A stretch of 64,000 nt of DNA from positions 1,178,001 to 1,242,000 of the forward strand of contig NZ_CP115464.1 in the NCBI RefSeq assembly GCF_027912515.1, given 5' to 3'. The first letter of the stretch is position 1. Every line of letters begins with the position of its first letter. Origin of the DNA: Brevundimonas sp. NIBR10. Its GTDB lineage: Bacteria; Pseudomonadota; Alphaproteobacteria; Caulobacterales; Caulobacteraceae. The notes beneath the pieces are model-generated. The model ran no database searches, had not been told where the DNA came from, and saw only the letters and a list, made by a program, of their open reading frames with translations. Positions 27,895 through 59,910 of this stretch are shown in pieces. Both the position numbers and the translations under genes were made by a program.

Positions 27895-27908
27895 GCCCTT
27901 ATCCCTTC

Positions 27909-28058
27909 CGTCATTCCGGGCGCAGCGTAGCGGAGACCCGGAACAAGGCGGCGCCGTAGCGGAGCGAAGGCGATGTTTGACGCAGATGCGTGCGTGACAG
28001 TTTCGCGCTCGCGCGCGCCGCCTTGTTCCGGGTTGCGCTGCGCGCCCCCGGAATGACG
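27909..28058. repeat. Inverted-repeat element between pccA and mutA
   Basis: Arms of about 45 bp, beginning CGTCATTCCGGGCGC and ending GGAATGACG, are near-complementary (both contain CCCGGAACAAGGCGGCG), with about 60 bp between. The ends resemble those of the palindromes flanking the nuclease gene at 30221, but the arms differ. It may attenuate read-through from pccA into mutA. Confidence 0.7.
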
Positions 28059-28075
28059 AAAGGGAGAGGAGTCCA

Positions 28076-30070
<1,995 letters not shown>

Positions 30071-30097: not shown

Positions 30098-30201
30098 CGT
30101 CATCCTAGGCCTTGTGCCTAGGATCCAGACGCTCGGTGCGGATCGTGGGTTACCGTCGCCGGCGGTGTTTCTGGATCCTCGGGACAGGCCCGAGGATGAC
30201 G
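30098..30201. repeat. Long palindromic element, left flank of GIY-YIG gene
   Basis: Left arm 30098-30129 (CGTCATCCTAGG...GGATCCAGA) pairs with right arm 30170-30201 (TCTGGATCCTCGG...GAGGATGACG). Each 32-bp arm contains its own small hairpin. The 40-base centre resembles that of the copy at 30655-30802 in the same orientation. It ends 19 bp before the nuclease start codon. Confidence 0.75.
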
Positions 30202-30220
30202 ATGGTGGGGAGACGAACGA

Positions 30221-30634
30221 ATGGTCACTCGCGACGGAATCATCGCCTGCTACATGATGTCCAACCAGATGCACGGTTCGATCTACATCGGCGTGAGCGG
30301 CGATCTCATTGCTCGCATTGGCCAGCATCGGGAGGGGCGCGGCAGTCGGCATACCAGCAAGTATGGGCTCAAGCGGCTGGTCTGGTATCAACCGTTCGAG
30401 TTGATGACGGTGGCGATCCAGCGGGAGAAGTCGCTGAAACGCTACGAGCGCGACTGGAAATGCAACCTGATCGAGCGGATGAATCCGGATTGGTCGGATT
30501 TGTACAACAGCCTGGTCACCGGGGGCGTGGCTGTGCCGCCCGACCCGGACCTGTACCGTGACTGGACGCCGAAGGAGGCGGAGCCGCCCAAGCCGCGTCC
30601 GCTGCCCAAGGACTGGCCGACGTCCGACGAGTGA
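30221..30634 (+). CDS. Single-domain GIY-YIG nuclease family protein
   Basis: The 137-residue protein is a stand-alone GIY-YIG domain. It has C-Y11-M in place of the first GIY strand, I-Y22-I-G24 as YIG, then R32 (DLIARIGQHR), H36, a W-Y strand at 55-56, catalytic-type E69 in AIQREKSLKRYERDWK, and N-P-D-W-S-D-L. That is the pattern of small UPF0213/YhbQ-like proteins. A 37-residue proline-rich tail follows (PPDPDLYRDWTPKE). A GGGGAG Shine-Dalgarno lies upstream. It runs opposite to pccB and pccA, is bracketed by two related palindromes about 20 bp from each end, and interrupts the carboxylase gene pair, which suggests insertion as a unit. Biochemical activity is unknown. Confidence 0.88.
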   Translation: MVTRDGIIACYMMSNQMHGSIYIGVSGDLIARIGQHREGRGSRHTSKYGLKRLVWYQPFELMTVAIQREKSLKRYERDWKCNLIERMNPDWSDLYNSLVTGGVAVPPDPDLYRDWTPKEAEPPKPRPLPKDWPTSDE

Positions 30635-30654
30635 CGAACCCGTATCCACACACT

Positions 30655-30802
30655 CCGTCACCCTAGGCCCCTCGGGACCGCGCCGCTTGCGCGGCCCGCC
30701 CAAGGGCAAGCTTGTGCCTAGGGTCCAGGCTCCCGGTGTTGGCCGTGACCCACCGTCCTCGACGGTGTTTCTGGATCCTCGGGACAAGCCCGAGGATGAC
30801 GG
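30655..30802. repeat. Long palindromic element, right flank of GIY-YIG gene
   Basis: This element belongs to the same family and orientation as 30098-30201: it begins CCGTCACCCTAGG, has GGGTCCAGG, a centre with CCGTCCTCGACGGTGTT, then TCTGGATCCTCGGGACAAG and GAGGATGACGG. The left arm carries an extra insertion of about 42 bases with its own GC-rich hairpin. It starts 20 bp after the nuclease stop codon. Confidence 0.72.
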
Positions 30803-30831: not shown

Positions 30832-32364
30832 CTACAGCGGAATGTTGTCGTGCTTCTTCCAGGGATTGTCCTGGACCTTGTTCTTCAGCGTCCGCAGGGC
30901 GCGGATCAGCCGGCGGCGCGTGCCGTGGGGCATGATGACGTCGTCGATGTAGCCGAGGCCCGCCGCCACGAAGGGGTTGGCGAACTTGTCCTTGTATTCG
31001 GCCTCGCGGGCGGCCAGCGCCTCGGGGTCGCCGGCCTCCTTGCGGAAGATGATCTCGACCGCGCCCTTGGTGCCCATGACCGCGATCTCGGCGGTGGGCC
31101 AGGCGTAGTTGACGTCGCCGCGCAGGTGTTTGGAGCTCATCACGTCATAGGCGCCGCCATAGGCCTTGCGCGTGATCAGGGTCAGTTTGGGCACGGTCGC
31201 CTCCGCATAGGCGAACAACAGCTTGGCCCCGTGCTTGATCAGGGCGCCGTATTCCTGCTTGGTCCCCGGCATGAAGCCCGGCACGTCGACGAAGGTCACG
31301 ATCGGGATGCCGAAGGCGTCGCAGAAGCGGACGAACCGCGCGGCCTTGCGGCTGGAGTCGATATCGAGCACGCCTGCCAGCACCTGGGGCTGGTTGGCGA
31401 CGATGCCGACGGGCTGGCCGTCCAGACGGCCGAAGCCGCAGACGATGTTCCTGGCGAAATCGGCCCCGATCTCGAAGAAGTCGGCCTCGTCGACCGTCTT
31501 CAGGATCAGCTCCTTCATGTCATAGGGCTGGTTCGGATTGGCCGGGATCAGGGTGTCGAGGCTGGCCTCGTCGCGGTCGGGCGTGTCGTACGACTCGCGC
31601 ACCGGGGGCTTCTCGCGGTTCGACAGGGGCAGGAAGCCGATCAGGCGGCGGACCTCCGACAGGGCCTCCAGATCGTTCTCGAAGGCGCCGTCGGCGACGC
31701 CGGACTTGCCCGCATGGACCTTGGCGCCGCCCAGGTCCTCGTGGCTGACGACCTCGTTGGTGACCGTCTTCACCACGTCGGGGCCGGTCACGTACATGTA
31801 GGACGTGTCCTTCACCATGAAGATGAAGTCGGTGATGGCCGGCGAATAGACGTCGCCGCCCGCGCACGGGCCCATGATGACGCTGATCTGGGGGATGACG
31901 CCCGAGGCCAGGGTGTTCTGGAGGAAGATGTCGGCGTATCCGGCCAGGGCCTCGACCCCCTCCTGGATGCGCGCCCCGCCGGCGTCGAACAGGCCGATGA
32001 TGGGGGCACCGGTGGTCAGGGCCATCTTCTGCAGCTTGACGATCTTGGCCGCGTGGGCGCCCGACAGGGAGCCGCCGAAGACCGTGAAATCCTTGGAGAA
32101 GACATAGACCAGACGGCCGCCGATGGCGCCTCGTCCGGTGACGACGCCGTCGCCGGGGATGCGCTGCTTGTCCATGCCGAACTGGGTCGAGCGGTGCTCG
32201 ACGAACATATCGGTTTCCTCGAACGAGCCCTCGTCCAGCAGGACGTCGATCCGCTCGCGCGCCGACAGCTTGCCCTTGGCGTGCTGGGCCGCGATGCGGG
32301 CCTCGCCACCACCGAGTTTCGCGGCCGCGCGGCGCTGGTCCAGTTGTTCGAGGATGGACTGCAT
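30832..32364 (-). CDS. pccB: Propionyl-CoA carboxylase, carboxyltransferase (beta) subunit
   Basis: This subunit transfers the carboxyl group from biotin to propionyl-CoA to give (S)-methylmalonyl-CoA. It has 510 residues, the usual length. Signatures are [36 protein letters not shown] and [18 protein letters not shown] in the N-terminal crotonase-like half. In the second half are [39 protein letters not shown] and [16 protein letters not shown], with the final [18 protein letters not shown] lies about 8 bases before the start. A 14-bp palindrome sits in the leader at 32374-32387, between this gene and the same-strand TetR regulator gene, so TetR-type control of the whole pcc-mut pathway is likely. 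Confidence 0.96.
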
Positions 32365-59695: not shown

Positions 59696-59910
59696 GTTCA
59701 TCACCAAGAGCACCAAGAATCCACAAAGGCCACGAAGGGACCGAGCGGGCGGTGCGGTCGGCAAACGGTTCCATGAATGGGTTTCAGCGGAAGGCCAGCC
59801 TGCGGCGCAGCTGCCGTCGTTCTCCGCGCCCTGTTTTCTGGCGCAGCGATATTGAATCCAGCGCTATCCCTTCGCGTCCTTTGTGGATTCTTGGTGCCCT
59901 TGGTGATGAA
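59696..59910. repeat. Fold-back element of the GTTCATCAC family, copy 2
   Basis: Left arm 59696-59745 starts GTTCATCACCAAGAGCACC and ends CACGAAGGGACCGAG; right arm 59868-59910 is near-complementary (ending CTTGGTGATGAA). It matches the arm ends of 23691-23902, with CACCAAG units replacing CACAACGAA. About 120 bp lie between the arms. Confidence 0.7.

What the first reader, a model, noticed from the sequence alone, without database searches (positions are those of the whole stretch)
30098..30802. GIY-YIG nuclease gene framed by paired long palindromes, inserted between pccB and pccA
A 104-bp palindrome ends 19 bp before the GIY-YIG start, and a second palindrome of the same family and orientation begins 20 bp after its stop. 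The block runs opposite to the surrounding genes and splits the two subunits of propionyl-CoA carboxylase. RAYT transposases flanked by REP palindromes show a similar layout (established), but no RAYT is present here. Inference: a single-domain GIY-YIG protein may recognise or mobilise these hairpins, giving a REP/MITE-like element with a non-RAYT nuclease.
Basis: partly seen in the sequence, partly recalled or inferred. Interest (0 to 1): 0.82.

Follow-up and report, generated by a model that had tools for sequence, protein, structure and literature searches.

The report
Nuclease gene inside repeat hairpins
A small DNA-cutting enzyme gene sits between copies of a repeated DNA hairpin, and in many related bacteria the same kind of gene sits beside its own matching hairpins, so the enzyme is a good candidate for the missing partner that recognises, and perhaps spreads, these repeats.

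Summary
A GIY-YIG nuclease gene (30221-30634, +) lies between two head-to-head pairs of CGTC-tagged REP hairpins (30098-30201; 30656-30801) in a pccB-pccA gap of a Brevundimonas-like genome. Di Nocera et al. 2013 described this REP superfamily and wrote that it 'apparently lack[s] a dedicated transposase'.

The pairing is systematic. Of 178 distinct relatives of the gene, 121 (43 of 64 genomic sites) have a CGTC- or CGCTC-tagged hairpin within 260 bp; density there is 40- and 28-fold that at 500-2000 bp, against 0.3- to 4.8-fold for five altered tags. At the pccB-pccA gap hairpins occur in 6 of 7 loci with the gene and 0 of 83 without; at sufB-sufC in 11 of 11 and 0 of 25. Hairpin class follows protein class. 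Dispersed copies of a class are commoner where the gene carries that class.

Best reading: nuclease and cognate REP form one small element. Recognition is very likely; mobilisation is inferred, and how the gene entered this gap is not shown. The Ssn nuclease of Neisseria (recalled; paper not held) probably belongs to this family, which limits novelty.

The parts
30098..30128 (+). CGTC REP, left arm of the upstream head-to-head pair
   Evidence: perfect 9-bp stem
30171..30201 (-). CGTC REP, right arm of the upstream pair; ends 19 bp before the ATG
   Evidence: perfect 9-bp stem; position
30221..30634 (+). single-domain GIY-YIG nuclease gene, 137 aa
   Evidence: model with GIY-YIG fold, mean pLDDT 82
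30656..30729 (+). CGTC REP, left arm of the downstream pair, with about 40 extra bases in the loop
   Evidence: read; fold; not found by the hairpin script because of the long loop
30771..30801 (-). CGTC REP, right arm of the downstream pair
   Evidence: perfect 9-bp stem
27902..28065 (.). long palindrome of a second CGTC class, 10 bp beyond the pccA stop; the same family lies upstream of the genome's second paralog (L002)
28076..30070 (-). pccA-like biotin carboxylase gene on one side of the gap
30832..32364 (-). pccB-like carboxyltransferase gene on the other side of the gap

Best explanation
Gene and hairpins form one unit: a small nuclease gene lying inside or beside head-to-head pairs of its own class of CGTC REP. 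In its cleanest form elsewhere (L026, 430 bp) it looks like a tiny insertion sequence: REP, 21 bp, gene, 20 bp, inverted REP. Gene-less REP pairs would be the non-autonomous copies. Shown here: adjacency far above background, preferred spacing and orientation, matching of hairpin class and protein class, more dispersed copies of a class where the gene carries that class, conserved catalytic residues, compensatory changes in the stem, and presence or absence of REP pairs between close relatives. Inferred: the protein recognises the tag and hairpin of its class in single-stranded DNA and nicks it, and this lets REP pairs be copied or moved to new sites. At this pccB-pccA gap the unit may have arrived by homologous exchange.
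For: Density per kb within 200 bp of 178 genes 2.46 and 2.13, against 0.00-0.20 from 200 to 2000 bp. Tag specificity: 39.8- and 28.3-fold for the two tags, 0.3- to 4.8-fold for five altered tags. Same-site controls 6 of 7 against 0 of 83 and 11 of 11 against 0 of 25 (Fisher p 1.1e-8 and 1.7e-9). Nearest upstream hairpin 15-24 bp from the called start in 43 of 69 genes. REP similarity follows protein identity across different sites: rho 0.39 over 2854 pairs; one gene per site, 37 sites, mean rho 0.27 against a maximum of 0.165 in 200 permutations. Dispersed copies, three classes, p 2.3e-6, 1.5e-5 and 0.0029. Stem: 99.2% of cells paired, 4 of 9 pairs with compensatory changes. REP pair present in 1 of 30 loci after rpmB, absent in the closest relative. 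Four of five named relatives examined are flanked, among them a gonococcal one in an array of such repeats.
Against: No exact filled/empty insertion pair and no target duplication was found. 57 of 178 genes and 21 of 64 sites have no hairpin of either tag, and Novosphingobium pNL2 has none. REPs of class 1 are also common in genomes whose listed genes are not flanked by class 1 (G028 23, G008 16, G049 14 copies). In the cross-table class-3 genes go as well with class-1 REPs (p 0.018) as with their own (p 0.034). Similarity inside the REPs exceeds that outside only upstream and only between closer proteins (0.50 against 0.40, 391 pairs); downstream it does not (0.38 against 0.41, 61 pairs). Relatedness of genomes was not corrected for. 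The gap takes other genes too.
Confidence: 0.6

Rival explanations
1. The nuclease recognises and cuts its REP class in single-stranded DNA, but for another purpose: it limits or shapes DNA uptake and recombination, with REPs as genomic marks. REPs near the gene are kept by selection or autoregulation and are moved by something else.
For: Adjacency and class matching fit this as well. From memory, the Neisseria Ssn nuclease modulates natural transformation through its repeat. The gonococcal relative lies in a dense array of dRS3-like repeats.
Against: Does not by itself explain the insertion-sequence-like layout REP-gene-inverted REP at several sites or why dispersed copies are commoner where the gene carries the same class.
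Confidence: 0.25
2. REPs are moved by an enzyme elsewhere in the genome, such as a RAYT, and merely tend to land, or be kept, next to GIY-YIG genes.
For: Di Nocera 2013 leaves open whether CGTC REPs are mobilised by RAYTs or other transposases (abstract). REP pairs occur away from the gene.
Against: Class matching between REP and protein, and absence of hairpins at the same two gaps when other sequence is inserted there. RAYTs were not searched for in these genomes.
Confidence: 0.08
3. The hairpins are terminators or RNA-processing signals of a small accessory gene that is exchanged among operon gaps by homologous recombination.
For: Stable folds, -63.7 and -78.2 kcal/mol. The gaps hold varied small ORFs. 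Filled and empty alleles differ in the flanking gene ends.
Against: The tag outside the stem is what is enriched; hairpins with altered tags show little or no enrichment. Other inserts in the same gaps lack such hairpins.
Confidence: 0.05

Closest known systems
CGTC-tagged REPs (Di Nocera et al. 2013, PMC3733652; abstract and named sections read)
   Same: CGTC tag, 9-bp stem starting AT, 5-base loop, CCA-type tail, head-to-head pairs, alpha-proteobacteria
   Different: That paper reports no associated transposase gene; here a GIY-YIG gene is associated. A CGCTC tag also occurs; the paper names TGTC and CCTC variants
Ssn / NTS of Neisseria (GIY-YIG single-strand nuclease; recalled, paper not held)
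   Same: Single-domain GIY-YIG protein with a multicopy short palindrome; a gonococcal relative, 44% identical over 66% of the query, lies among dRS3-like repeats
   Different: Whether that paper reports REP-bounded genes, class matching or mobility is not known to me. That the gonococcal gene is the published ssn was not tested
RAYT / REP systems (REPtrons)
   Same: Enzyme gene flanked by its own REP class; pairs of REPs dispersed in the genome (described)
   Different: Enzyme is GIY-YIG, not an HUH tyrosine transposase; tag CGTC, not GTAG
Insertion sequences and MITEs
   Same: Inverted repeats around one gene, with shorter gene-less copies
   Different: No exact insertion pair, target duplication or transposition shown; the enzyme is not a known transposase
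Free-standing GIY-YIG homing nucleases
   Same: GIY-YIG nuclease; presence/absence at gene gaps
   Different: No intron or intein seen; a multicopy hairpin partner rather than one target gene; no match in 50,697 phage records at E 1e-5
UPF0213 proteins
   Same: Nearest solved sequence, BH0048 (1zg2), E 0.004, and first in the fold search (E 0.0034)
   Different: Weak similarity; no REP link examined

Membership tests
CGTC REP superfamily | unpaired CGTC tag, 8-9 bp stem beginning AT, loop of 4-5, CCA-type tail | tested here: met
CGTC REP superfamily | mostly head-to-head pairs, multicopy | tested here: met
   two pairs here; 8 exact class-1 matches in the own genome, 0 for the reversed pattern
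RAYT/REP | HUH tyrosine transposase | tested here: not met
   the gene's only Pfam match is GIY-YIG
RAYT/REP | GTAG-tagged REPs | tested here: not met
   tag is CGTC
Ssn-type GIY-YIG nuclease | single-domain GIY-YIG protein with catalytic residues | tested here: met
   Y11, Y22, R32, E69, N88 at 99-100% in the alignment of 178
Ssn-type GIY-YIG nuclease | gene accompanied by a cognate multicopy repeat | tested here: met
Ssn-type GIY-YIG nuclease | homology to the published Neisseria Ssn | tested here: inconclusive
   a gonococcal homolog in dRS3-like repeats; identity with Ssn not checked
Ssn-type GIY-YIG nuclease | site-specific cleavage of single-stranded DNA | not testable with these tools
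   needs an assay
Insertion sequence | terminal inverted repeats around one gene | tested here: met
   L023, L024, L026; in the window a full REP pair on each side
Insertion sequence | precise empty sites or target duplications | tested here: inconclusive
   presence/absence seen, exact ends not
Insertion sequence | transposition by the encoded enzyme | not testable with these tools
   needs an assay
Homing endonuclease | homing into the empty allele of one target gene | tested here: inconclusive
   43 flanked sites of 64 argue against a single target; co-conversion at one gap cannot be excluded

The most novel reading that the evidence does not exclude
Single-domain GIY-YIG nucleases are the dedicated mobilising enzymes of the CGTC (and a CGCTC-tagged) REP superfamily. 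They form REP-bounded elements of about 0.4 kb that would be transposon-like elements driven by a GIY-YIG nuclease, parallel to but unrelated to RAYT/REP.
Probability: 0.4. Interest if true: 0.82.

Novelty: new variant of a known kind. Interest (0 to 1): 0.64.

Why it matters
CGTC REPs occur in all orders of alpha-proteobacteria, in Neisseria, Rickettsia and Wolbachia (Di Nocera 2013), and that paper left open how they spread. A matched nuclease makes the question testable with one small protein and one 31-base hairpin. If the nuclease moves them, it adds a new chemistry to REP-like mobile DNA; if it only cuts them, the flanking REP predicts the target of many small nucleases.

Tried and rejected
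The repeat finder with 12-base seeds missed the palindromes; a hairpin script replaced it. The genome-contig scan with the single protein gave only 2 loci. tRNA scan of 5 loci gave one unassigned tRNA, Rfam scan of 6 loci nothing. No phage record matched at E 1e-5.

Rejected: the pccB-pccA gap as proof of transposition. Of 90 loci it is 8-11 bp in 14, holds other sequence of 320-1398 bp in 21, holds this gene in 7, and pccB was not found in range in 48 (counted from its listing); the pccA start region differs between filled L045 and empty L046, L047, L049. L026/L183 as a clean empty site: L183 has a solo hairpin, which I read as a remnant, though an older solo repeat is possible. A hairpin definition that demanded pairing of the first stem base lost a whole class and was dropped (union 71 of 178); one search replaces it. 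The boundary test was positive only upstream between closer proteins.

Papers: PMC3733652 was read in part: outline and abstract, whole-text parts 1-2 of 8, the section on tyrosine transposases, part 1 of 2 of the Discussion. All other papers were seen only in search listings. Searches with no paper: GIY-YIG with 'repetitive extragenic palindromic', with dRS3, with Neisseria and 'single-stranded nuclease', and 'nuclease family Ssn'. Five papers hold 'repin' and GIY-YIG; I take 'Repin' there as an author's name and did not check. The Ssn paper is recalled only; not finding it here says nothing about print at large.

Full report
WHAT IS THERE. The window lies in a 4.0-Mb single-contig genome. 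The nearest named record is a Brevundimonas MAG whose protein is 100% identical to the query. Between pccA and pccB, and opposite to both, lies a 137-aa GIY-YIG gene at 30221-30634. It is flanked by two head-to-head pairs of hairpins, 30098-30201 and 30656-30801. The regular arms have the tag CGTC, a 9-bp stem, a 5-base loop and a CCAG tail; the left arm of the second pair has about 40 extra bases in its loop. This fits the CGTC REP superfamily, whose authors write that CGTC repeats are not associated with transposase genes. The genome has one other close paralog, 42% identical (L002), and two more distant GIY-YIG proteins, one in a 669-aa frame that I take to be uvrC. No strict CGTC hairpin lies in the 3.2-kb loci of those two.

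THE SECOND PARALOG HAS ITS OWN CLASS. About 25 bp upstream of the L002 gene begins a long palindrome with arms of the CGTCATTCCGGGC type (the arm nearest the gene reads CGTGAT). The strict script does not see it, because its stem has bulges. The same palindrome family stands in the window at 27902-28065, 10 bp beyond the pccA stop. So two repeat classes bracket pccA, and each also flanks one of the genome's two close paralogs. Copies of this second class elsewhere in the genome were not counted.

IS THE PAIRING SYSTEMATIC? 87 of 101 genomes of the genus and 93 of 289 genomes sampled from the class carry a relative. From the loci fetched I took 178 distinct genes at 64 distinct sites. Hairpin density is 2.46 and 2.13 per kb in the 200 bp on either side and 0.00-0.20 per kb from 200 to 2000 bp. 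By the first definition 78 of 178 genes and 37 of 64 sites are flanked, 38 genes on both sides. Reading the unflanked ones showed a second tag, CGCTCAT. With both tags 121 of 178 genes and 43 of 64 sites are flanked within 260 bp. The ratio of near to far density is 39.8 and 28.3 for the two tags, and 0.3, 4.8, 2.0, 0.5 and 0.4 for five altered tags, each of which gave 1 to 5 near hairpins. 57 genes remain unflanked. Some have bulged long palindromes that the script misses (L249); others may have none.

SPACING AND ORIENTATION. Of 69 genes with an upstream hairpin, the nearest is in + orientation in 52, and 15-24 bp from the called start in 43. Of 47 with a downstream hairpin, the nearest is in - orientation in 28, and 0-29 bp from the stop in 31.

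SAME-SITE CONTROLS. At the pccB-pccA gap of 90 loci, hairpins occur in 6 of the 7 with the gene and 0 of the 83 without; in 48 of the 83 pccB was not in range, and up to 1500 bp beyond pccA was searched instead. At sufB-sufC it is 11 of 11 with and 0 of 25 without. Both gaps also hold other small ORFs, so the hairpins do not come with just any insert. Fisher p 1.1e-8 and 1.7e-9, not corrected for relatedness.

CLASS MATCHING. Over pairs at different sites, median REP similarity is 0.70 at 40-50% protein identity, 0.74 at 50-60% and 0.92 at 60-80%. With one gene per site (37 sites) mean rho is 0.27; the highest of 200 permutations is 0.165. Genomes whose gene is flanked by class 1, 2 or 3 (7, 14 and 13 genomes) have more dispersed copies of that class: medians 17, 1 and 5 against 0, 0 and 1, flanking copies subtracted, p 2.3e-6, 1.5e-5 and 0.0029. 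In a cross-table with a cruder subtraction, each REP class has its lowest p with the matching gene class. But class-3 genes go with class-1 REPs (p 0.018) no worse than with their own (p 0.034). Class-1 REPs are also numerous in G028, G008 and G049, whose listed genes are not flanked by class 1.

THE HAIRPIN IS SELECTED. The 14 distinct class-1 forms I copied from the capped listing pair in 99.2% of cells, with compensatory changes at 4 of 9 pairs; covariation is 0.387 against 0.115 in shuffles. The search pattern fixed some columns but left three of the four covarying pairs free; at the fourth (columns 5 and 25) it allowed only Y and R.

ELEMENT FORM. In L023, L024 and L026 the layout is REP, 21 bp, gene, 20-27 bp, inverted REP; L026 is 430 bp from tag to tag. 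In the window there is a full pair on each side. In L032 the downstream REP overlaps the gene's end. At the L026 site, G070 has only a solo hairpin, probably a remnant (L183). L148 keeps only half an arm downstream, as if by deletion. L164 has a REP pair directly upstream of the gene where L161 has none, with similar flanks. In the own genome the REP pair after rpmB is absent in the closest relative, G095, and in 28 other loci: 1 of 30 has it. So REP pairs come and go, but none of these comparisons shows exact insertion ends. Similarity between different-site copies is 0.50 just inside and 0.40 just outside the upstream REP for closer proteins (391 pairs); it is equal for more distant proteins, and not higher inside downstream.

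BEYOND THE GENUS. Of 32 plasmid-collection records with a relative five were examined. Sinorhizobium meliloti pSymB has a REP 19 bp upstream. Rhizobium sp. CIAT894 has one 19 bp up and one 30 bp down. Azospirillum lipoferum 4B has the gene between sufB and sufC, with REP pairs 26 bp up and 20 bp down. Novosphingobium pNL2 has none. In a gonococcal record the gene lies among 12 CGTC hairpins of the dRS3 type within about 600 bp, one starting 2 bp after the stop codon and none within 100 bp upstream.

MECHANISM. The residues expected for catalysis are kept (Y11, Y22, R32, E69, N88; their roles recalled), and the model resembles UPF0213, Slx1 and the UvrC N-terminal domain, though with no fold match at E 0.001 or below. 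I infer that the protein recognises tag and hairpin of its own class in single-stranded DNA and nicks it. From memory, the meningococcal Ssn cuts its repeat in single-stranded DNA. Mobilisation would follow if cut REP pairs are copied or joined at new sites; that step is inference. I rate recognition of the flanking REP class at about 0.9 and mobilisation at about 0.4.

VERDICT. It offers a candidate for the enzyme that Di Nocera et al. did not find. Novelty is limited by the Ssn work, which I could not read here.

Noticed in passing
window 27902-28065: Long palindrome of a second CGTC class right after pccA, the same family as the one upstream of the genome's second GIY-YIG paralog.
   Followed up: partly
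pccB-pccA gap, e.g. L044, L048, L062, L064, L123-L163: In 21 of 90 loci the gap holds other sequence of 320-1398 bp with varied small ORFs; by eye some look like Fic/Doc and phosphatase proteins, not scanned. A cargo hotspot.
   Followed up: partly
L020, L021, L022 against L224 (sufB-sufC): The last codons of sufB appear twice, in two synonymous versions, on either side of the GIY-YIG unit; L224 without the unit has one (L022 by eye). Suggests that gap contents arrive with a recoded gene end.
   Followed up: partly
L241, L079, L080, L089, L250, L265 and others: A REP class tagged CGCTCAT flanks GIY-YIG genes in 42 of 178 cases at 6 sites, in the best cases 24 bp on both sides.
   Followed up: partly
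L096, L109, L119, L377 and the L020 group: GIY-YIG genes sit between sufB and sufC in several families of alpha-proteobacteria, Azospirillum included.
   Followed up: partly
window 59697-59749 and 59858-59910: Unrelated 53-nt inverted repeats, 87% complementary, 108 nt apart; looks like a MITE.
   Followed up: no
window 30668-30709, approximately: About 40 extra bases in the loop of one REP, with a small palindrome of their own; shared with the closest relative L042.
   Followed up: no
NZ_CP119140.1 and NZ_CP119142.1: Two records of about 2.17 Mb filed as Neisseria gonorrhoeae plasmids look like chromosomes by size.
   Followed up: no
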